From positions 2,728,001-2,792,000 of the forward strand of contig NZ_CP146022.1 in NCBI RefSeq assembly GCF_036967205.1: 64,000 bases of DNA. Reading direction: 5' to 3'. Of the stretch, positions 1-54,456 are shown piece by piece (position 1 is the first letter of the stretch; each line of letters starts with the position of its first letter). Below the pieces are notes generated by a model that saw only the letters and a program-made list of their open reading frames with translations, was not told the DNA's origin and ran no database searches. The translations under genes were made by a program, and so were the position numbers. The stretch comes from Streptomyces sp. Q6 (lineage in GTDB: Bacteria > Actinomycetota > Actinomycetes > Streptomycetales > Streptomycetaceae).

Positions 1-1407
1 TCGACGACATCAGCGCGTCCTTGAGCCGGGCGCCCGTCCAGTCCGGGTGCTTCTGGGCGAGCAGCGCGGCGACGCCCGCGACGTGCGGCGTCGCCATCGA
101 CGTACCGCTCATGGTGGTGTACGCGCCGGAGCCCTCGGTCAGCGAGGAGCGGGCCGCGAGGATGTCGACGCCGGGTGCGGAGACATCGGGCTTGAGGCCG
201 TTGTCTCCGGTGCGCGGGCCCTGGCTGGAGAAGTCGGCGCGCCGGTCGTCGGCGTCGACCGCGCCGACGGTCAGCGCGGCGTCGGCGGCGCCGGGCGAGC
301 CGATGGTGTACGCGCCGTACGCGTTGCCCGCGGCGACCACGAAGAGTGCGCCGGTCTCCTGGGACAGGGAGTTGACGGCGGCGGCCATCGGGTCGGTGCC
401 GTCGCTCCCGGTGTCCGAGCCGAGGCTCATCGAGACGACCTTGGCCTTGACGTCCTTGGCGGCCCACTCCATCCCGGCGATGATCTGCGACTCGCTGCCG
501 TAGCCCTCGTTGTCGAGGACCTTGCCGACGGCGAGGGTGGCGTCGGGGGCGACGCCCTTCTCCTTGCCGTCGGAGGCGGCGCCGGATCCGCCGACGGTCG
601 AGGTGACGTGGGTGCCGTGGCCGTGCCGGTCGGCGACCTCCTCGCCGTCGATGAAGGACTTCGACTCGGTGACCCGCGACGCGAGGTCGGGGTGCGCGGG
701 GTCGTAGCCGGTGTCGAGGACGGCGACCTTCACGCCCTTGCCGGTGAGCCCGGCCTCCCAGGCGCTCGGGGTGCCGATCTGGGCGTTGGACTGCTCCATG
801 TCGCCCTCGACGCGGCCGTCGAGCCAGATCTTCCCGATCCCGTCGGCGAACCCGCTCTTGCCGGTGGTGGCCGCGTTCCAGAACGTACGGCCCTTGTCCG
901 CGTCCAGGGCGGCGCCGCCGATGCTGCCCAGCGCGCGGGTGCGGTCGGCGCCCGCGGGGTGGCGGCGGCGCCGCGGGCGGCCTTGTTCCGATAGGTGACG
1001 ATCAGCGGGGTCGCGGCGGCCTTCTTGTCCGCGAGCCCCTGCCGTATCAGCCCGCTGACGTCGAAGAGGCGGGCGTCGAGGGTGCCCGCTTCGAGATAGG
1101 GCCGCGCCTCGTCGGGCACCACGCTCACCTCGCCGCCCGACACCTGCGTCCTGACGGCACCGGTCGCGCCCTTCGCCCGGTCGACGGTGACGGTCCGCCG
1201 GCCGCCGCCCAGTTCGGTGACGGTCACCTTGTCGCCGGTCACCAGGGTCACGGTGTGCGCGGCGCGCGCGGCCCGCGTGGTCGTCGGCGCCGGTGCCGTC
1301 GACGCGTCCGGTACGGCGGCCTGGGTCCCTCCGGCGGGCAGCAGCGCGAACGCGACACCGGCCGACAGCAGGGCCGCGCCACGTCTCGCGGCAGGTCCTC
1401 TGGTCAT
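1..1407 (-). CDS. S8 subtilisin-like secreted serine protease, partial at window edge, with a frame lesion
   Basis: Secreted subtilisin-like endopeptidase. It starts with ATG at 1407 behind a GAGAGG ribosome binding site, followed by an Arg-rich signal peptide (about residues 1-30, ending near TQAAVP) and a prodomain. The catalytic triad can be read: Asp in VLDTGYD (about 713), His in GHGTHV (605-625) and Ser in SGTSMATPHVAG (98-100). The C-terminus lies beyond base 1. The signal/prodomain frame (1407 to about 960) and the protease frame (below about 960) differ by one base. Adding one G to the GGGG run at 956-959 makes TPAGADRTRAL continuous. The gene is therefore a frameshifted pseudogene or, more likely, carries a sequence error. 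It is transcribed divergently from the conflict operon. Confidence 0.85.
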
Positions 1408-1602: not shown

Positions 1603-1989
1603 GTGGACAGCGCGGACGGTACGGACGGCATGGACGGCCTGGTGGAGTTCAAGGTCGACGGGACGGGGACACCGATCCTGTTCGAGGTGGCCGGCGACGA
1701 GGAGACGGGCGCCCGCATGGTGGCCCGCGGCGGCGGCCCCGTCCAGGCGACGGCCACCTTCGAGACGGCCCTGGACTCGGTCCGCTCGGCCGCCCAGTCG
1801 GCCCTGCGCGTCCTGCGCGACGGCCCGCTCTCCCCCGACGGCGTGGAGATCGAGTTCGGCGTGAAGCTGTCGGCGGAGGCGGGGGCGTTCATCACGAAGG
1901 GGACGGCGGAGGGCCACCTGGTGGTCAAGCTCAGCTGGTCGCGCGAGACGCCGCAGGACCCGGCCGCGGGAGCTCCGTCCGGCTCATGA
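1603..1989 (+). CDS. Trypsin-co-occurring domain (Trypco1 / CU044_2847-like) small protein
   Basis: Small acidic single-domain protein (128 aa from GTG 1603, 119 aa from ATG 1630). GTG 1603 is preferred because GGGGGC lies just upstream; an earlier in-frame start at 1432 would add an unconserved Arg-rich extension. The body reads LVEFKVDGTPILFEV-like at the N-terminus, then a central helix with ALDSVRSAAQSAL, then EIEFGVKLSAEAGAFI and a final strand HLVVKLSW. This matches, from memory, the Trypco1 family that accompanies trypsin-like proteases in actinobacterial conflict systems. Its stop overlaps the start of the protease gene (ATGA at 1986-1989), indicating translational coupling. The biochemical role is unknown; by family context it is probably a protease partner or regulator. 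Confidence 0.75.
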   Translation: MDSADGTDGMDGLVEFKVDGTGTPILFEVAGDEETGARMVARGGGPVQATATFETALDSVRSAAQSALRVLRDGPLSPDGVEIEFGVKLSAEAGAFITKGTAEGHLVVKLSWSRETPQDPAAGAPSGS

Positions 1990-3626
1990 GCGACGCACAG
2001 TGGGTGGCCCGCGTCGAGTGCGCGGGCCGGATCGTCGGCTCCGGCTTCCTGGTCGCCGGGCGCACGGTCCTGACCTGCGCCCATGTCGTCGCGGGCGGCG
2101 CCGACGTGACCGTCTCCTTCCCGCACAGACCGGCCGACGCGCCGGTCGCGGCGCGGGTCCTGGTCGGCGGCGGCTGGCGGGGCGACGCCACCACCCACGG
2201 CGACCTGGCCGTGCTCGAACTGGCCCGCGAGGTGGACCTCGCCCCGGCCAGGCTCGCCCACGAGGCGACCGCGTACGGCGGACAGAACGGCCCGGCGCCG
2301 ACGCTGCTCGCCTACGGCTTCCCGAAGAAGTACGACGAGGGGACGATCGCCGAGTACCGCACCAAGGGCTCGATCAGGGTGCTCGACGAGTGGGTCGAAC
2401 TGGTGGCGCTCGACAGCCACGGACAGCCCCTCGACCACGGTTTCAGCGGCGCCGCGCTGGCCGTCGCGGGCACCAACCGGGTCGTCGGCATGGTCACCTC
2501 CGCCACCGGCGGCGCCGATGTGCTGACCGGCCGGATGATGCCGCTGTCCGTGATGGCCCGCTACTGGCCGGACCTCGCCCTGTACCTGCCGGGCGCGGCC
2601 CGGCTGACCGCGCTCGTCGAGCGGGTGCGGCGCCTGGGCCTCGACTGCAACCCGGAGCGCCTCTACCGGTACGCGGCGGGCGCGTTCGATCCGCCGGTGC
2701 CGCCGCACGGCCTCAACTCCCTGGAGGCGGCGGCGATGTACGCCCTGGACGCGCCGGACGCCGAGGTCGCCGAGCGGCTCGCGGACCGGCTCACCGAGCT
2801 CGTCACCGCGGCCCCGGAGCGCCCTCGCCCGGCCCGCCGCACCACCGCCTGGTCACCGGTCCTGTTCACGGTCGAGCACACCGGCGCGGGCGAGGACGAG
2901 GTGCGCGTGGAGGTGTCCGCGTACCACGAGGGACACCGGCATCTGGTCGAGGAGCCGCGCACGGTGCCGGTCGCCGAGGTCGGTGGGTACGTGGCGTCCG
3001 TCATCGACGCGGCGATGGACCATCTGCCCGACGAGACCGACGAGTTGGTCGCCTTCCAGCTGCCGCGCCGCCATCTGAACTGGCCGGTCGCGCACTGGCC
3101 GGCGAGCGCCGACAACTCCACCCCGATGGGCTGCGCCTACCCGGTCGTGGTGACCGCGACGGCCCGCAGGGGCGGTGGCAGCCGTCGGCGTCTCGTCCGC
3201 CGCTGGCAGGAGAGCGGCGACCGGCCCACGGCGGGTGTGCACCGCGTCGGCTGCTCCGGCGGCACGCCCAGCCAGTGGGATCTGGCCCGTGCGGACGTGG
3301 TGGGGTTCGCCGCCCCGCCGGCCGGGGAGGGCGGCCCGCACGACGCGGCGCTGGCCAAGCCGGTACCGGCGCTGCTGTGGCCGCGCGCCGGCTGCGACGG
3401 CGGTCACCGGCCGGACGAGACCTGCCCGGGGGCCGCGTTCCTGGACGCGGTGGGCCCGTACGTGTCCCAGGTGAGCCTCGCCGAACTGCCGCGCCACATC
3501 ATGGAGTTGCGGGAGCGGGCGAGCGGCCGGGCGGAACACTGGGCGGGCGACGTCCAACTCCTGTGGGACGCTCCGCACTGTTTCCCCGCACCACCCAGGA
3601 CGCACGCCCACTGCCCGGTGGCCTGA
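1986..3626 (+). CDS. Trypsin-like serine protease fused to VMAP-C domain
   Basis: 546 aa cytosolic protein without a signal peptide. The N-terminal trypsin-like fold has a complete triad: His33 in TCAHVV, Asp73 in HGDLAVLEL and Ser154 in GFSGAA. After a linker region (about residues 195-285), the C-terminal half carries blocks typical of the VMAP-C domain: FQLPRRHLNWPVAHW, PALLWPRAGCDG, LPRHIMELRERA and VQLLWDAP. VMAP-C proteins belong to vWA-MoxR-associated ternary systems, where a protease is one of the usual effectors (family knowledge). The gene overlaps Trypco1 by 4 bases and is followed 48 bases later by the MoxR ATPase, so one operon is likely. The substrate is unknown. Confidence 0.8.
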   Translation: MSDAQWVARVECAGRIVGSGFLVAGRTVLTCAHVVAGGADVTVSFPHRPADAPVAARVLVGGGWRGDATTHGDLAVLELAREVDLAPARLAHEATAYGGQNGPAPTLLAYGFPKKYDEGTIAEYRTKGSIRVLDEWVELVALDSHGQPLDHGFSGAALAVAGTNRVVGMVTSATGGADVLTGRMMPLSVMARYWPDLALYLPGAARLTALVERVRRLGLDCNPERLYRYAAGAFDPPVPPHGLNSLEAAAMYALDAPDAEVAERLADRLTELVTAAPERPRPARRTTAWSPVLFTVEHTGAGEDEVRVEVSAYHEGHRHLVEEPRTVPVAEVGGYVASVIDAAMDHLPDETDELVAFQLPRRHLNWPVAHWPASADNSTPMGCAYPVVVTATARRGGGSRRRLVRRWQESGDRPTAGVHRVGCSGGTPSQWDLARADVVGFAAPPAGEGGPHDAALAKPVPALLWPRAGCDGGHRPDETCPGAAFLDAVGPYVSQVSLAELPRHIMELRERASGRAEHWAGDVQLLWDAPHCFPAPPRTHAHCPVA

Positions 3627-3674
3627 CGGCCCGCACGGGACGACGGGACCGACAGAACGGAAAGCGAGAGGTTC

Positions 3675-4664
3675 ATGCCCGAGTGGCCCGTGTACCGCGG
3701 CACGAACGAACCGCACGACGGTATCGACCGGCTGCCCGCGCCCCCGCCGTGGCGGGCCTTCGACGGGGGCCCGCTCCTCCCGGTCCCCGACGAGAGCGAG
3801 GACCTGGCGGCGGTCTCACCCGACCGCGTGCACCGCGCCCACACCTACCGGCCCACCGCCGAGAGCGTGGACCTGGTCAACGCGGCGCTCTTCCTGCGCC
3901 GCCCCCTGCTCGTCACCGGCCCGCCCGGCACCGGCAAGTCGTCCCTCGCGTACGCCGTGGCACGGGAGTTGGGGCTCGGCCCGGTGCTGCGCTGGAACAT
4001 CACGAGCCGCTCCGCGCTCGCCGACGGCCTGTACCGCTACGACCCGCTGTCGCGCCTGTACGCGGCCCGCGCCACGGACCGGGTGAAGGTGGAGGACCAT
4101 CTCCACCTCGGCCCGCTGGGCACCGCGCTGCTGCCTCACGAGCGGCCGCGCGCCCTGCTCGTCGACGAGATCGACAAGAGCGACCTCGACCTGCCCAACG
4201 ACCTCCTGAACGTCCTGGAGGAGGGGCAGTTCGAGATCCCGGAGCTGCTGCGCGCGGGCGGCACCGCCGAGGTGCGGGCCGACGGCACGGACACGAAGGT
4301 GCCGGTGCGGGGCGGGCGGGTGCGCTGCCGGGCGTTCCCGTTCGTGGTGCTGACCAGCAACGGCGAGCGGGAGTTCCCCGCGGCGTTCCTGCGCCGCTGC
4401 GTCACGCTGAACCTGCGCCGCCCCGACGAGGCGCAGCTCGCCGCGATCGTCCGCGCCCATCTCGGCGAACCCGACGCCGAGGCCCGCCAGTTGATCTCCC
4501 GCTTCCTGTCCCGCGCGAACGCGGGCGAACTCGCCACCGACCAGTTGCTCAACGCCCTGTATCTCACCGGCACGGCGGGCCTGGACGCCGATTCCCGCGA
4601 GGCGCTGGCCCTGCGTCTGATGCCGGGGCTGCGGCAGCCGGCGCCGGACCACGATGCGCACTGA
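3675..4664 (+). CDS. MoxR-type AAA+ ATPase of the conflict operon
   Basis: 329 aa ATPase. It has Walker A GPPGTGKS (residues 82-89), Walker B ALLVDEIDKSD (about 155-165) and sensor 1 VVLTSNGERE followed by the arginine-finger region AFLRRCVTL. The segment after Walker A (LRWNITSRSALADGLYRYDPLSRL) is typical of the MoxR branch found beside SAV_2336 proteins. MoxR ATPases remodel partner complexes, usually working with vWA proteins; here the likely partner is the vWA-like region of the next protein. A GAGAGG ribosome binding site precedes ATG 3675. The gene overlaps the next start by 11 bases (ATG 4654), which supports co-translation. Confidence 0.88.
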   Translation: MPEWPVYRGTNEPHDGIDRLPAPPPWRAFDGGPLLPVPDESEDLAAVSPDRVHRAHTYRPTAESVDLVNAALFLRRPLLVTGPPGTGKSSLAYAVARELGLGPVLRWNITSRSALADGLYRYDPLSRLYAARATDRVKVEDHLHLGPLGTALLPHERPRALLVDEIDKSDLDLPNDLLNVLEEGQFEIPELLRAGGTAEVRADGTDTKVPVRGGRVRCRAFPFVVLTSNGEREFPAAFLRRCVTLNLRRPDEAQLAAIVRAHLGEPDAEARQLISRFLSRANAGELATDQLLNALYLTGTAGLDADSREALALRLMPGLRQPAPDHDAH

Positions 4665-7600
4665 GCTGGGCCGGCTCGCCGCCGCCCTCACCACCGCGGC
4701 GGAGGGCACCGAACCGACACCGGTGGAACTCGCGGAACTTCTGTGGCTGGCACGGGAGTTGGAGCGGATCGAGCGGCCGGTGCAGGACACGGCGCGTCCG
4801 GAGCAGGAGACGGCGCGGGGTGGATCCGTACGGGAGAAGGCCGGGCCGCGACGGCAGGAGCGGCCGCCCGCGGAGTGCCCGGCAGACCCCGAACCCGGAC
4901 GGCCCGCCGCGCCCCACCCCCTCCGCCGCCCGCCCCACCGCGCCCCGCGCCCGCCCGCGTCACGCTCTACGTCCAGCGGGAGGAGCCGCCCACCCCCGGC
5001 ACCCTCCTCGCTCCCACCCCGCCGATGCTGCGCCACCCGCTGGACCTCCAGCGCGCCCTGCGCCCACTGGGCCGCCGCGTCCCCTCGCCCACCGGCGCCC
5101 GCGTCATCGACGAGCACGCCACCGCGGACCGCATCGCACGCCTGGGCGGCGGCCCCGACGCCTGGCTGCCGGTGCTGCGCCCGGCACCGGAACGCTGGCT
5201 GCGCCTGGCCCTCGTGCACGACACGGGCCCGACCATGCCGATCTGGCACCCCCTGCTGCGGGAACTGCACACCGCCCTCACCCAGTCGGGCCTCTTCCGC
5301 ACCGTCAGCGTGCACCCGGCCACACCCGACGGCCGCGTCCAGCGCCTCTCGCCGCCCGCGGACGGCCGCACCGTCGTCCTCCTGCTCAGCGACTGCACCG
5401 GCCCGCAGTGGCACCCCGGCGACGCGGGCACCCGCTGGCTCGACACCCTGCACCGGCTGGCGCGCCGCGCCCCGCTCGCCGTGCTCCAGCCGCTGCCCGA
5501 GCGCCTGTGGCGCACCACAGCGCTGCCCGCCACCGCGGGGCGCCTCGCCTCCCCGCACCCGGCGGCGCCGTCCGCGGCGCTGCGCTTCACGCCGTACGAC
5601 ACCGAGGAGCGGGCCCCGCGCGGAGCGCTCGCGGTGCCGGTCTTGGAGGCGGAGCCGCGCTGGCTCGCCCACTGGTCCCGGCTCACCGGCGCGCCCGGCG
5701 GCGCCGACGTGCCGGGCGCGGCGGCCTGGCTGACGCGCGAACCGGCGGAGTCGGCGCGGCCGGCCCGCGCGCTCGCCGCGTCCCCGGAGGAGCTCGTCCT
5801 GGATTTCCGTGCCACCGCGTCCCCGGAGGCGTTCCGGCTCGCCGGGCATCTGGCGGTCGGCGCCCCGCACCTGCCCGTGATGCGCCTGATCCAGGCCACT
5901 CTGGAGCGCCGTCCGCGCCCCTCGCACCTGGCCGAGGTCATCCTCTCCGGCATGCTCACGCAGGACGCGGGCCCGCCGGGCTCCTACGCCTTCCGGCCGG
6001 GCGTCCGCGCGTTGCTGCTGCGCACGCTGCCGCGCTCGGCGCGCGGCCGTACGACCCTGTTCCTCGCCGAGCGCGGGGCCCTGATCGACGACCGGGCGGG
6101 CGCGGCACCGGGCGACTTCGCGGCGTCGACGCGGGGCGCGCGCGAGGACGCGGTGGCGGCCGTGACCGAGGAGAGCGTGCGGCGGCTCGGCGGCCGCTAT
6201 CTCCTCGACCGGGCGATCGGGGCGCGCGGGTCCGTCTGGCTGGCCCGCGACCTCGACCAGGGCGGCACGGTGATCGTGGAGCGGTTCGCGACCTCCGACC
6301 CCGCCGCCTTCCGGCGGGTCGCCGGCAGACTGACCGGACTCGACCACCCGAACGTGGCCCGGGTCCTGGACCACGGGTTCACGGACGGGGACGCGTACGT
6401 CGTCATGGAGCATCTGGACGGGATCCCGCTGGACGCGCTGCTGCGCACACCCCGGCTGATCGCACGTCGGCGGGACCGGCTGGCGCAGGATCTCGCCCGC
6501 GGGGTCCGGGCGCTGCACGACGCGGGCGTCACGCTCGGCGAACTGCTCCCGTCCCGCGTCCTGCTGCTGCCGGACGGCACCACCAAGCTGACCCGGTTCT
6601 GGTACGGCCCGCACAGCGCGTACGAACTGCGGCAGGATCTGCTCGAACTCGGGCGGCTGCTCGCCTCGTTCGACATCGTGCCGCACGTGGCCCTCGCCCT
6701 GGCCGGACCCGACGCGCACGCGGCCGATCGGGCCCTGTTCGACCTGGCCGAGGGGCAGTTGGCGAACAGCCCCGACCCCCTGCCCCCGGAGCGCTCCTTC
6801 CAGCTTCTCGGCGCCCCGAGGATCACCCTGCCGAACGGCGACCTCGCCACTCCGGGGCCGCGCCAGCAGGCTTTCCTGTGCGCCCTGTTGAGTGACCCCG
6901 GACGCGTCGTCCCGCTGGCGGCGATCGCGCATGCCCTCTGGGGCGACGAGCCGCCCTCCGACGCCGGCAACCAGATCGCCGCCTGGGCGAGGCGATCGGC
7001 CGACGACGACGTGGCCCTGATCGCCAAGACCCGGACCGGGTACGCCGTCCACATCAGCGCCGACCACCTCGACGTGGACGTACTGGCGAGCCGGGAGGTC
7101 GATGTCGCGACGGCTGTCGCGGCCGGGGACACGGAGGCCGCCCGCGCGCACGCCACCGCCGCCCTCGACCTCTTCTACGGAACGCCTCTCGACGGGGTCC
7201 CCGGCCCCGGCGCCGCACAGATCCGCGCCCACCTCGAAGAGCGGCGCTTCGCCCTGCGCCGCCAACTCGTCGAGCTGGACCTGGACTCCGGCGATCTGGA
7301 CCGCGCCGAGGCGGCCCTGGTGGCGCTCCTGGTCGAGAACCCCGGCCGGGCGGACCTGCTGCGGATGCACGCACGGACCCGCGGACGCCTCGGCACTCCA
7401 CCCGCCGCGCCCTCCGGCGGGCGCCTGGCGCACGCCTCCGCCCTGTTCTCGGCACAGGACGCGCGGCCCGGACAAGTGGAGTCGCTGGCAGCCGAGTTGA
7501 CGGCGGTCGCGGGCCTCGGCCCCGACACGTACCGGATGTCCACCACCACCCCGACGGTCTGCGAGGTCGTCCTGACCGATGCCGCGGCGACGGATCTGCT

Positions 7601-9803
7601 GCTGGCCACGACGGTGGAGCACCTCACGCGCCTGGTCGCCGAGACGCCCGTCGACGGCCGGGTGAGCGTCACGTTCTGGCCGATGGGCTCCCGCATCCCG
7701 ATCGTCGCGAGCCACCTCCCGGCCCCCGTGGAGGTCACGGCATCCCTCGACCTGGTGCCGCGCGAGCGCGCCCTGGCCCTCGGCATGCGCCCGCTGAGTC
7801 CGCTCGGCGGTGCGCCGGACGTCTGGAAGCACCAGCTCCTGGCCCGCAGCACGGTGGAGCAACTCGGCTGGGTGATCGACGACGTGACGCGGGAGTGGAC
7901 CAGCACACCGCTGCGCCACGCGCTCGTCGACTCCCTCAATACGGCGCTGCGGAGCGCGGGCCTCACCCCGCGCCTCGACGCGTCCAGTCCCGGTCCCGTA
8001 CTCGCCTCCGCGGCCCTGCGCGTCCCGGACGGCCGCCGCGCCCTCCTGGAGGCCGTCGTCCGGTACGCGCCGACGAGCGTCGCCCGCGTCGAGGAGGCCC
8101 TCGCACACCAGGGCGCGGCCTTCCCGCCCGGCCTGCTCACGGCGGCGCTGACGGAGACCCGGGAGCTGAACACTCCCGCCCAGCTCACCTTGTGCGCGCG
8201 CCTGTTGCACGATCTCCTGGACATCCACATGGTGTCGCCGGTCGACGCCGGGGAACTGGCGGAGGCGACGCTGGGGCATCCGGACGGGCTGTCCTTCCTC
8301 TGCCACCTGGTCGACCATCTCGCGGGCACCGAGGCGGCCACGGAGTTCGTGCGCCGGGTCGGTTCGGGCCTGCCGGTTCCGCACTCCCGCGACTCCGTGC
8401 CGAGCGCGCTCGACGACCGCTTCCGCCTGGCCGAGGCCCTGCGGTCACGCCCCATGCTGGACACGCGGGCCCGGCGCCGCGGCCTCGCCGACGCGCTGGC
8501 CGCCGAACTGGGCCGCCCCGTCGCACTCGCCGGCCCCCGGCGCGCCGACGCCCTCGCCCTCGCCCACGCCGCCCTCAACCATCCGACCGGCAGGCAGACG
8601 CTGAACATGCTCGTCGAGCGCCTGCGTCTGCTGGCCCCTCCCGCGAGCCCGGCCCCACCCGACTCCTTCGCCCGCGGCCCGCTCCCCCTCCCCGGTGACG
8701 GCGTCGACCTCACCCCGAACACCGTCCCGGTCTACGTCCGCCCCGACGGCAGTCTCACCCTGACCGCTCCCCAACGCTCCGAGTTCAGCTGGGAGTTCTA
8801 CGAGATCGACCTGACCCAGTACACGTACGACCTGGACGAGGTCCTGCTCGGCGCCCGCGTCGACGTCCGCGTCGCCGATCCGGTGGAGGTCGCGCTCGCC
8901 CCTGACCTGGACCTGCCCACGCTCCTCGCGGAACGTCTGACCCAGGCCCTGCACGGGGGCGACCGGGCGGCGGCCGAGGAGGAACTCGACCGCCGCCCGC
9001 TGCCCGGCTACACGGTCCGCTGGCGCCTCCCGAAGACCGTGCCGGAACGAGGACCGGAGCCCGCCGCTCCCGCACCGGCCCACGCGTCCGGAACGGCCCG
9101 CATCCTCAACGAGGTCCTCACGACCGCCGAGGCCTACCTCCTCGGCTTCGACGGACTCCTGCTCGATCTGCACACGCAACGGCACAACGACACGGCCGCG
9201 CTGGCCAACTACTCGGCCGGCCTCCTCGCCCACCGCGGACGCCTCGACGGTCCCGCCGCGTCCGACAGACTCCCCGTCACCTCGTCGCTCGACTCTCGTC
9301 CCCTTGATGTCCTGCGCTTCTTCGCGGACGACGCCGCGCTGTCGCGCGCCCTGCGCGAACGCCTGGAAGAGCTGGAACTGAGCGCCCTGCGCACCGCCCG
9401 CCCGCACCGCGACGCGGACCTCCTCGTGCGCGCCCTGAACGCCACGGGGCGCCCGGTCTCCGTCGTCTCCGACGTGGCCCCGCACGTCATCTCGACCTAC
9501 CTGCAAGGCCGTTCACCGGCCTTACGGGCCGCCGTGCACGGCCGCTCCGACGACCCGGACTACCTGATGCCCCACCCCGACGTCCTGCACCGCGCCCTGC
9601 ACCTGCTGGGTGTCCCCACCCAGCACGGCGTCCTGATCGGCTCGTCCCCCGCCGAGCTTCGGGCGGCCCGTGCCATCGACCTCCCCTTCGTCGGCTACGC
9701 CGCGACGTCCCGCGACGCCGCACGCCTCACGGAGGACGGCGCCCTCCTCGTCGTACGGCACCTGTCCGAACTGGTCGACGCGGCACGCGGCATCAGGCGC
9801 TGA
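4654..9803 (+). CDS. Giant SAV_2336-type multidomain protein (vWA-like, pseudokinase, wHTH-BTAD, EAD2-like, HAD-like), apparent frame lesion
   Basis: About 1,715 aa if repaired. The N-terminus from ATG 4654 (LGRLAAALTTAAEG, ELAELLWLARELE) matches the SAV_2336 N-terminal helix but is one base out of frame with the rest. Adding one C to the run at 4912-4915 or 4917-4921 joins it to a Pro-rich linker. Domains in order: vWA-like (about 5180-5560) with MIDAS reduced to HDTGPTM; a middle domain with SPEAFRLAGHLAVGAP and SHLAEVILSGML; a kinase-like fold (about 6187-6610) lacking VAIK, HRD and DFG; OmpR-type winged helix plus BTAD (about 6795-7395); an EAD2-like helical segment (about 8420-8640); and a HAD-like C-terminus (about 9094-9790) with GFDGLL instead of DxDG. 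It is probably the scaffold or signal integrator of the system; no intact catalytic site was recognised. Confidence 0.75.
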
Positions 9804-9810
9804 GGACCGC

Positions 9811-10176
9811 CTAGAGCAGCCCGGTGCCCAGCCACCCCGCCACCGCCGCGAGCACGAGCAGCACCACGTTCAGCCCGATCACCCGGGCCTCGCCGCGCAG
9901 CAGGTGCAGCGTCGCCCCGCCGAGCTGGACCAGCACGAGCCCCGCCGCCGCGGCCACCGCGAGGCCCACCGCGATGCCGGTCAGCGGCGGCAGGACGAGA
10001 CCGAGGGCGCCGAGTATCTCCAGGGCGCCGATGGCCCGTACGTACGGCATGGGTACCTGGTCGACCCAGGCCATCATCGGCCGTAGCTCCTCCTGCCCCT
10101 GCACCACCTTCTTTCCGCCCGCGTAGGCGTAGAACAGGGCGAGCAGAGCGGCGACGATCCAGTACGCGACGTGCAT
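9811..10176 (-). CDS. DoxX family small membrane protein
   Basis: 121 aa integral membrane protein with four predicted helices. The ATG at 10176 has GGAGG upstream; an in-frame start at 10194 is less well placed. The first helix and loop YWIVAALLALFYAYAGGKKV plus a glycine-rich second helix (GALEILGALGLVLPP) are typical of the DoxX/DoxX-like fold. Members are often linked to redox or detoxification and controlled by a neighbouring HxlR or MarR regulator (family context). That arrangement is present here, with the HxlR gene divergent at 10296. The stop lies in CTAG at 9811, only 7 bases past the convergent giant gene. The exact function is unknown. Confidence 0.8.
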   Translation of the reverse strand: MHVAYWIVAALLALFYAYAGGKKVVQGQEELRPMMAWVDQVPMPYVRAIGALEILGALGLVLPPLTGIAVGLAVAAAAGLVLVQLGGATLHLLRGEARVIGLNVVLLVLAAVAGWLGTGLL

Positions 10177-10295
10177 GACGGCCTCCCCGGCCAATGGTTA
10201 CGAACCGTAAGTTGCCCCATGATGAGTGACCGGCGGGAGGCCTACAAAAGGCACACGGATGTGCGTCAGGCACACAGGACGGTCGAGGAGACACC

Positions 10296-10673
10296 GTGGA
10301 CGAGTACCAGCACACGTGCATGATCAGGGGAGACGGCGGGCGGGCGATCCGCGCGATCCTGGACCGGATCTGCGACAAGTGGACGATGCTGATCGTGGCC
10401 ACGCTCGACGACGGCCGGATGCGCTTCACCGAACTGAAGGAGCACATCCCCGGCATCTCGCAGCGGATGCTCACCCTGACCCTGCGCCATCTCGAACGCG
10501 ACGGCCTCGTCTCCCGCACCGCCTACGCGGAGGTGCCGCCCCGCGTCGAGTACGAGCTCACCGCCCTCGGCAAGAGCCTCATCCCGCCCGCCCTGACGCT
10601 CGCGGGCTGGGCCATCGAGCACAACGGCGAGATCCTGGCCAGCAGAGAGACGTACGCCGCCCGTCAGAAGTGA
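10296..10673 (+). CDS. HxlR family winged-helix transcriptional regulator
   Basis: 125 aa regulator starting at GTG 10296, with GAGGAG about 5 bases upstream. The HxlR signature is clear: an N-terminal Cys (HTCMIRG) in place of the usual CP[IV] start, DKWTMLIVATL, RFTELKEHIPGISQRMLTLTLRHLERDGLVSR in pieces around residues 40-75, then EYELTALGKSL. HxlR proteins often sense aldehydes, quinones or oxidants through this N-terminal cysteine. It is divergent from the DoxX gene, and the roughly 120-base shared region likely contains its operator. The likely role is local control of DoxX. Confidence 0.88.
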   Translation: MDEYQHTCMIRGDGGRAIRAILDRICDKWTMLIVATLDDGRMRFTELKEHIPGISQRMLTLTLRHLERDGLVSRTAYAEVPPRVEYELTALGKSLIPPALTLAGWAIEHNGEILASRETYAARQK

Positions 10674-53575: not shown

Positions 53576-54456
53576 TCACCCCGTCGGGGCCGTCGACGCC
53601 GCCAGTTTCTCCAGCCGCTCCGCGGTCTCGTCGTCCGCCGGGAGGTAGGCGACGACGCGGTACGCGTCGCTGTCCGGGGCGAGCCACATGTGGCGGTGCT
53701 CCAGGCGCAGCAGGCCGACCTCCGGGTCAGGGTGCAGATAGCGCTTGACGTGCGAGACCATCGGCGCGACGTCGTGCCGCCGCCACAGTGCGCGGAACTC
53801 CTCGGACGCTTCGAGGAGCTCGTCGACCGGCGTCTTCCAGGCGGGTTCGGCGACGTGCTCGGCCATCGCCTTGCGGTACTTGGCGAGGAGCTCGGGCAGC
53901 ATCACGTCGCGGTCGAGGAACCGCACGCGCCAGCGGTCGTTCATGAACATCAGCCACAGGGCGTTGCGGTGCCGTGGCTCGTGCTCGGCGGGGTCGCCGA
54001 AGACGTCGGTGTAGGCCCGGTTGTGGGCGAGGATGTCGTACCGGGCGTTCTTCACCTCGGCGGGGTACGGCTCCAGGCGGCGCAGCAGCCGCAGGACCGT
54101 GGGCGTGACGGCGGGGCTCTCCGGGGTGGCGCGCGGGTCGGTGGTCCCGGCGAGCGCGAAGGCGTGGGCCCGCTCGGTGGGGTCCATCCGCAGGGCGCGG
54201 GCGATGGCGTCGAGGACGCCGGCCGAGACGTTGATGGCGCGGCCCTGCTCCAGCCACGTGTACCAGGTGATGCCGACCGAGGCGAGGTGCGCGACCTCCT
54301 CGCGGCGCAGGCCGGGGTGCGGCGGCGGGCCGTGCCGGGCAGGCCGACCTGGTCCGGGGTGATGCGCTCGCGGCGGCTGCGCAGGAAGGCGGCCAGCTCG
54401 GCGCGGCGCGGACCGTCCGCCGACGCGGTCCCTGCGGCGGTCGCGGCAGTCGTCAT
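53576..54456 (-). CDS. XRE-type regulator with MmyB-like ligand-binding domain, frame lesion in HTH region
   Basis: N-terminal frame (ATG 54456): GPRRAELAAFLRSRRERITPDQVGLPGTARRRTP. The second frame continues LRREEVAHLASVGITWYTWLEQGRAINVS to the C-terminal MmyB-like domain (AEVKNARYDILAHNRAY). The lesion lies at GGGG 54314-54317; the intact paralogue has GGGGG at the same place (56803-56807). With repair about 293 aa. Divergent from the MFS gene, so probably its repressor. Confidence 0.85.

What the first reader, a model, noticed from the sequence alone, without database searches (positions are those of the whole stretch)
1603..9803. Complete Trypco1-protease-MoxR-SAV_2336 operon: a probable NTP-dependent conflict (defence-like) system
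Four tightly spaced genes encode a Trypco1-like small protein, a trypsin fused to VMAP-C, a MoxR AAA+ ATPase and a giant SAV_2336-type scaffold. The catalytic triad (His33, Asp73, Ser154) and AAA+ motifs are intact. This matches the ternary vWA-MoxR-VMAP systems predicted to mediate conflict with phages or selfish DNA in multicellular bacteria. Most members have no experimental function. The separate fully intact protease suggests a proteolytic effector gated by MoxR ATP hydrolysis.
Basis: partly seen in the sequence, partly recalled or inferred. Interest (0 to 1): 0.85.

Follow-up and report, generated by a model that had tools for sequence, protein, structure and literature searches.

The report
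Streptomyces protease-ATPase conflict operon
A four-gene set in a soil bacterium encodes a protein-cutting enzyme, an ATP-driven motor and a giant protein whose enzyme-like parts look inactive; it belongs to an already described, still untested family of probable anti-virus systems, and here it offers a clean way to ask which part senses and which part acts.

Summary
The observation mostly holds. Four co-directional genes encode Trypco1, a trypsin-like protease joined to VMAP-C, a MoxR-type ATPase and a giant SAV_2336 protein: a "VMAP classical ternary" MoxR-vWA system as described by Kaur et al. 2020 (PMC7159879), so a new member of a known kind. Corrections: gene 4 is not cleanly intact; its conserved N-terminus starts at ATG 4654 in another frame than the rest (two further apparent frame changes in the window suggest assembly indels). 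The "scaffold" is the third, vWA-position component; its vWA fold could not be confirmed here. Additions: (1) the protease triad is invariant in 81 of 81 sequences, while the tail's kinase-like and HAD-like domains lack catalytic residues in the subgroup that carries them; (2) the tail holds an EAD2-like triplet, found full-length in only one other of 295 genomes searched; (3) the operon sits beside an mreB-like core gene (54 of 68 loci), with debris in two of four "empty" sites examined, which may explain the published 33% position bias; (4) the genome has a second VMAP system with EAD2. I found no functional test of such systems. Likeliest working: MoxR-gated protease output, only slightly ahead of the published reverse model.

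The parts
1603..1989 (+). Trypco1 small protein (128 aa)
   Evidence: PF19493 92.5 bits; NF041216 80.8 bits
1986..3626 (+). VMAP component: trypsin-like protease (aa 1-200, His33/Asp73/Ser154), middle region without a Pfam match, VMAP-C (aa 304-530)
   Evidence: PF13365, PF20028; triad invariant in 81 of 81
3675..4664 (+). MoxR-type AAA+ ATPase (329 aa)
   Evidence: PF07728, PF00004; Walker A Lys88 78 of 78, Walker B Asp164-Glu165 80 of 80, Arg240 80 of 80
4654..4953 (+). N-terminal conserved stretch and linker of the SAV_2336/vWA-position gene; frame differs from the downstream part
   Evidence: NF041121 positions 3-73, 20 bits; frames shown; same ORF as the core in 30 of 31 relatives
4974..6101 (+). 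SAV_2336 core, third (vWA-position) component; Asp160 and Asp217 (numbering of ORF 4743) invariant
   Evidence: NF041121 382 bits; Asp160 71 of 71, Asp217 72 of 72
6183..6599 (+). kinase-like domain without catalytic residues
   Evidence: PknB-like 42.3 bits; VAIK Lys 0 of 53, HRD Asp 1 of 52, DFG Asp 0 of 51 at the aligned columns
6789..7394 (+). SARP-like winged helix plus BTAD
   Evidence: PF03704 40.5 bits; AfsR model 89.9 bits over this part, below its cut-off of 1430
7914..8648 (+). tandem array of three EAD2-like repeats, only the third over the cut-off
   Evidence: genome scan 14.1, 17.3 and 29.7 bits; homologous array in G103
8700..9080 (+). segment taken for a Band-7-like domain from Kaur's description; not tested
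   Evidence: 47% identical segment in G103
9108..9803 (+). HAD-like domain lacking nucleophile, Lys and motif IV Asp
   Evidence: PF00702 19.2 bits, below cut-off 26.4; nucleophile Asp 0 of 47, Lys 0 of 48

Best explanation
Identity (about 0.93): a VMAP-type MoxR-vWA ternary conflict system with a Trypco1-trypsin module, resident at a fixed locus of Streptomyces. Working (about 0.45): the VMAP protein, a MoxR ring and the vWA-position protein form an off-state complex. The long tail of the third protein (kinase-like, SARP-like, EAD2-like triplet, HAD-like) is bait: folds resembling host enzymes that an invader's protein engages. Binding is passed to MoxR, ATP hydrolysis remodels the complex, and the trypsin-like protease of VMAP, with Trypco1 as small partner, is let loose on host proteins or on the tail itself, leading to arrest or death of the hyphal compartment. 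Shown: domains, gene order, intact protease and ATPase motifs, missing catalytic residues in the tail, rapid divergence of tail and VMAP. Inferred: complex, sensing, gating, substrate, outcome.
For: Domains; gene order in 68 of 80 loci; triad 81 of 81 and MoxR motifs; kinase-like and HAD-like domains without a full catalytic set. Against G103, the nearest operon relative found, dN is 0.02 for the adjacent MreB, 0.13-0.28 for Trypco1, trypsin, VMAP middle, VMAP-C, MoxR and SAV_2336 core, and 0.43-0.65 along the tail. Patchy presence, with debris in two of four empty sites examined, fits a costly, often lost system. PMC10907252 (passages) proposed this direction of signal flow.
Against: No functional data. 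Kaur et al. read the tail as effectors released by the protease, and Hachiman/AVAST proteases activate a partner by cleavage (PMC12799240, passages). TIR, NB-ARC, SpoIIE and GTPase matches occur in other tails. Six of 72 tails keep a DFG by pattern, nine have an Asp beside the aligned DFG column, and G103 keeps a VAVK-type Lys. If the frame change is real this copy may not work at all.
Confidence: 0.45

Rival explanations
1. Reverse direction (Kaur et al. 2020): VMAP senses the invader, MoxR remodels, and the VMAP protease cuts the third protein to set free its tail domains, which act as decoys, dominant negatives or, for the SARP-like part, as a transcription factor.
For: Published model; precedent of trypsin-like proteases activating a partner in Hachiman and AVAST (passages); the tail holds a SARP-like winged helix plus BTAD; VMAP-C and the VMAP middle diverge as fast as the tail in three of four comparisons, as expected if VMAP senses.
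Against: Released kinase-like and HAD-like parts would be inactive as enzymes. No cleavage site was identified here.
Confidence: 0.37
2. Broken copy (compatible with either direction): the frame change is a real mutation, the third component lacks its N-terminus, and the operon is on its way out, as in the genomes that keep only debris.
For: Frame change between ATG 4654 and the core; a HAD piece in G040 and a lone Trypco1 in G033 at the same address.
Against: Two other genes in the window, a subtilisin and an XRE-type regulator, also seem to change frame (read by eye), as residual indels of an assembly would; the rest of gene 4 is open over 1,686 codons.
Confidence: 0.25
3. Not defence but regulation of growth or development: a MoxR-driven chaperone-protease tied to the neighbouring MreB-like gene.
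For: mreB-like gene same-strand within 1.5 kb downstream in 51 of 68 loci.
Against: All 73 same-genus genomes match over the mreB part, but only 12 of these 73 have a VMAP match below E 1e-40; in this window DoxX and HxlR genes separate the two; tail content varies.
Confidence: 0.08

Closest known systems
VMAP classical ternary MoxR-vWA conflict systems (Kaur et al. 2020, PMC7159879)
   Same: VMAP with N-terminal trypsin and VMAP-C, then MoxR, then vWA component, Trypco1 neighbour, inactive kinase with wHTH, inactive HAD (sections and passages)
   Different: EAD2-like triplet inside the third component's tail, whereas the sections I read place EAD2 on VMAP or on signalling enzymes (source data not read); HAD also lacks the nucleophile, beyond the lysine they name; frame change in gene 4
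DGR-linked ternary systems of Thiohalocapsa (PMC10907252; passages)
   Same: trypsin-VMAP, MoxR, vWA with a variable tail; tail proposed as sensor
   Different: no C-type lectin match in the four proteins; the neighbourhood was not searched for a retroelement
System B of the same genome, L056 (C1 7.316-7.326 Mb)
   Same: VMAP-C, MoxR-type AAA+, SAV_2336 protein in the same order
   Different: VMAP has EAD2 and VMAP-M0 in place of trypsin; tail is NB-ARC plus TPR; a downstream protein ends in EAD2
Hachiman/AVAST nuclease-protease pairs (PMC12799240; passages)
   Same: trypsin-like protease fused to a defence protein, partner gene immediately upstream
   Different: partner there is a nuclease proenzyme; Trypco1 gave no nuclease hit

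Membership tests
VMAP ternary system | VMAP-C domain | tested here: met
   PF20028 118 bits, cut-off 27
VMAP ternary system | AAA+ ATPase of the MoxR clade with Walker A/B and arginine finger | tested here: met
   AAA_5 over cut-off; motifs 78 of 78 and 80 of 80. The clade-specific helix-2 insert was not tested; bpMoxR is below its cut-off (24.3 against 27)
VMAP ternary system | vWA domain with two metal-binding aspartates | tested here: inconclusive
   two invariant Asp; hhalign puts the DxGPTM motif on the vWA motif but only over 13 columns, E 0.09, probability 0.6%; no PDB match
VMAP ternary system | strict order VMAP, MoxR, vWA | tested here: met
   68 of 80 loci, with Trypco1 in front
VMAP ternary system | trypsin accompanied by Trypco1 or Trypco2 | tested here: met
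   PF19493 92.5 bits; 77 of 80 loci
VMAP ternary system | protection against an invader | not testable with these tools
   no experiment possible; none seen in the listings of searches
EAD2 | score over Pfam cut-off 23.8 | tested here: inconclusive
   22.8 and 23.3 bits for the protein, 29.7 for the third repeat in the genome scan, 37.2 for the middle repeat in G103
active Ser/Thr kinase | VAIK Lys, HRD Asp, DFG Asp | tested here: not met
   Glu513, Glu600, Arg618 in the window protein
active HAD hydrolase | nucleophile Asp and motif III Lys | tested here: not met
   Gly1468 and Met1609 in the window protein
AfsR/SARP regulator | full AfsR equivalog model | tested here: not met
   89.9 bits against a cut-off of 1430; only the winged helix and BTAD part matches

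The most novel reading that the evidence does not exclude
The tail of the third component is a multi-bait sensor made of dead copies of host enzymes, and its EAD2-like triplet physically couples this trypsin system to the second, EAD2-based VMAP system of the same genome, so that one trigger can fire two proteases: a cross-wired bacterial death network.
Probability: 0.1. Interest if true: 0.8.

Novelty: new member of a known kind. Interest (0 to 1): 0.42.

Why it matters
Two published models disagree on which end of these systems senses and which acts. Here the only enzyme sites that look intact are one protease and one ATPase, and the third protein's kinase-like and HAD-like parts lack their catalytic residues, so point mutants could give a clear answer. 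The fixed address beside an mreB-like core gene also offers a simpler reading of the reported placing of VMAP systems about 33% from the chromosome ends (Kaur et al., passage): shared descent at one locus, not arm recombination. That reading is testable on existing genomes.

Tried and rejected
Chance ORFs: rejected by HMM hits and conserved order. Programmed frameshifting of gene 4: rejected, 30 of 31 relatives with both parts detected have one frame (L091, the exception, was not followed). Wholesale allele replacement of the tail: not favoured; against G103 dS is 0.40-0.62 in the core and MreB and 0.58-1.10 in the tail, while dN rises more. The subtilisin rows are from a wrong frame and are not used; the mreB comparison used a wrong frame and was replaced.

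Insertion of a mobile operon: weakened by debris in two of four empty sites. I picked these four by eye because both flanks lie side by side; the other genomes without the operon were not examined. Two of the four are clean and say nothing. EAD2 coupling to system B: the window's tail copies are 17-26% identical to system B's two copies, no more than to copies of other genomes; a rough tree of 29 short sequences does place the tail copies beside VMAP-type copies, system B's among them (support 0.82-0.87), weakly in favour. G103 has the array but no other EAD2 over the cut-off, so coupling in trans is not required. PADLOC models matched only kinase-like, protease or AAA parts. Solved-structure and profile-profile searches for a vWA fold were inconclusive.
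Full report
What is there. Four co-directional genes lie between a subtilisin gene (minus strand; identified from its sequence, not by HMM) and, after a DoxX and an HxlR gene, an mreB-like gene. They encode Trypco1 (1603-1989), trypsin plus VMAP-C (1986-3626), a MoxR-type AAA+ protein (3675-4664) and a SAV_2336 protein whose large ORF is 4743-9803. The window lies at 2.73 Mb of an 8.57 Mb contig. The genus is inferred to be Streptomyces: the contig of a same-genus genome (G081, 20,948 bases) has the length of a named Streptomyces atriruber contig that carries the same operon.

The fourth gene. A conserved N-terminal stretch (NF041121 positions 3-73; 20 bits, E 0.00026) is read from ATG 4654, which overlaps the MoxR stop; the core is read in another frame. 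The codon-usage path left 4651-4952 unassigned, so the argument is homology: N-terminal matches and core share one ORF in 30 of 31 named loci where both were detected, and in G103. The same path, read by eye, shows frame changes inside two further genes, a subtilisin near 955 and an XRE-type regulator near 54,313; two other switches were ordinary gene boundaries. I take an assembly indel as likelier than a dead gene, but cannot tell.

Conservation. Of 101 genomes of the genus, 42 match the VMAP protein at E 0.001 or better and 15, own genome included, below E 1e-40. Of these 80, Trypco1 was found in 77, VMAP-C in 78, MoxR in 79, SAV_2336 in 71, and the full order in 68. Of the other 12, eight end at a contig end, one has a run of N, two lack a detectable Trypco1 and one a detectable VMAP-C. 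Protease His33, Asp73, Ser154: 81 of 81. MoxR Walker A Lys88: 78 of 78 rows without a gap (2 gaps); Walker B Asp-Glu and Arg240: 80 of 80. The VMAP middle of the window protein has no Pfam match; VMAP-M8 was found in 7 and VMAP-M0 in 5 of 33 relatives.

The tail. After the SAV_2336 core come a kinase-like domain, a SARP-like winged helix with BTAD, an EAD2-like array, a segment that I take, from Kaur's description, for a Band-7 domain (not tested), and a HAD-like domain. Kinase-like domains were picked up by phmmer in 53 of 72 third components (window included): VAIK Lys 0 of 53, HRD Asp 1 of 52, DFG Asp 0 of 51 at the aligned column, though nine have an Asp in the neighbouring column. By pattern, six of 72 hold a DFG, none of them with HRD or VAIK. 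HAD-like domains were picked up in 48 of 72: nucleophile Asp 0 of 47, motif III Lys 0 of 48. Forty have both, 13 only the kinase-like, 8 only the HAD-like, 11 neither. In the second batch of 36 tails Pfam lists TIR (6 members), SpoIIE, NB-ARC and a GTPase domain (1 each), and one strong Pkinase match (1.3e-32). So 'dead tail' is a statement about the kinase/HAD subgroup. G103's kinase-like domain keeps a VAVK lysine but, by eye, no HRD or DFG.

EAD2. Three tandem repeats score 14.1, 17.3 and 29.7 bits in the genome scan; only the third passes the cut-off. The 286-residue stretch has a full-length relative (39%) in one other of the 295 genomes searched, G103, and partial matches in two more. 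The own genome's other EAD2 copies over the cut-off are both in system B: a VMAP with EAD2, VMAP-M0 and VMAP-C, a MoxR-type AAA+, a SAV_2336 protein with NB-ARC and TPR, and a protein ending in EAD2. I read that last protein as caspase-like from its HG and DAC motifs (recalled; no caspase match); the ORF before it has a weak hydrolase match (16.6 bits, below cut-off). The window's tail copies are 17-26% identical to system B's copies, no closer than to those of other genomes, though a rough tree puts them beside VMAP-type copies including system B's. G103 has no other EAD2 over the cut-off. The coupling idea is open, with little support.

Address and loss. Of 71 named loci with the SAV_2336 gene, 68 had at least 1.5 kb beyond it; in 51 the mreB-like gene follows on the same strand within 1.5 kb (usual gap 120-220 bp), in three more within 1.75 kb, and in 14 it was not found in the locus, 11 of these with a SAV_2336 core under 58% identical to the window's. 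All 73 same-genus genomes match over the mreB part; 12 of these 73 carry a VMAP match below E 1e-40. In four of them, picked by eye, the subtilisin gene lies next to mreB without the operon: G040 keeps a HAD piece read in two frames, G033 a lone Trypco1; G059 and G010 are clean. This suggests a resident operon lost at least twice. Kaur et al. report VMAP systems clustering near 33% from the ends of linear Streptomycetales chromosomes and suggest arm recombination (passage). The window's operon lies at 0.32; of ten operons on long contigs, seven lie at 0.31-0.37 and three at 0.06, 0.12 and 0.20. The mreB-like gene lies at 0.25-0.40 in 20 of 31 genomes of at most six contigs (median 0.315; one further such genome, G004, left out for want of a contig length; lengths mostly rounded genome sizes, so rough). 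Shared descent beside mreB is a simpler candidate explanation for at least this subtype.

Rates. Against G103, dN/dS is 0.06 for MreB, 0.28 MoxR, 0.35 trypsin, 0.38 VMAP-C, 0.35 SAV_2336 core, 0.53 Trypco1, 0.56 VMAP middle, and in the tail 0.41 (kinase-like), 0.75 (SARP/BTAD), 0.80 (next segment), 0.89 (EAD2 array), 0.75 (Band-7-like), 0.65 (HAD-like); dN is 0.43-0.65 in the tail and at most 0.28 elsewhere. Against three other operons (L036, L073, L060; L119 repeats L036) VMAP-C (0.59-1.03) and the VMAP middle (0.56-0.97) are as high as the tail (0.70-0.93). So both ends diverge fast, as Kaur et al. noted, and the rates do not by themselves name the sensor. Simple counting method and GC-rich codons: approximate.

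Papers. Kaur et al. 2020: sections 8, 9 (part 2), 19, 30, 35 (part 1) and passages. PMC10907252, PMC10910872, PMC8195603 and PMC12799240: passages only. SAV_2336 occurs in no held paper and Trypco1 in two. I saw no experimental test of a VMAP ternary system in the listings of searches; the library is partial and most listed papers were not opened.

Verdict. A real, conserved operon and a good example of a described family. The protease-as-output reading is plausible and matches one published model; the reverse model is nearly as likely. The new points worth keeping are the missing catalytic residues of the tail domains across this subgroup, the EAD2-like triplet in the third component, the mreB address with debris, and the frame change that makes this particular copy doubtful.

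Noticed in passing
window 1-1407: Minus-strand subtilisin-like gene appears to change frame near position 955.
   Followed up: partly
window 53582-54427: An XRE-type regulator (by eye, no HMM run) on the minus strand appears to change frame near 54,313, the third such case in the window.
   Followed up: partly
window 9811-10673: DoxX-like and HxlR genes sit between the operon and the mreB-like gene; neither was found in the 71 named loci that hold the SAV_2336 gene.
   Followed up: partly
L056 5452-14690: A second VMAP system of the same genome: EAD2-VMAP, MoxR-type AAA+, SAV_2336-NB-ARC-TPR, and a protein ending in EAD2 that looks caspase-like (motifs recalled).
   Followed up: partly
L117, L120-L123, L125, L127, L130, L134, L136, L137: These 11 third components have neither a kinase-like nor a HAD-like hit; TIR, NB-ARC, SpoIIE and GTPase matches occur in the batch that contains them.
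   Followed up: no
L187 2877-3553 and L188 2375-2689: Operon debris (a HAD piece in two frames; a lone Trypco1) at the otherwise empty mreB-adjacent site of two congeners.
   Followed up: yes
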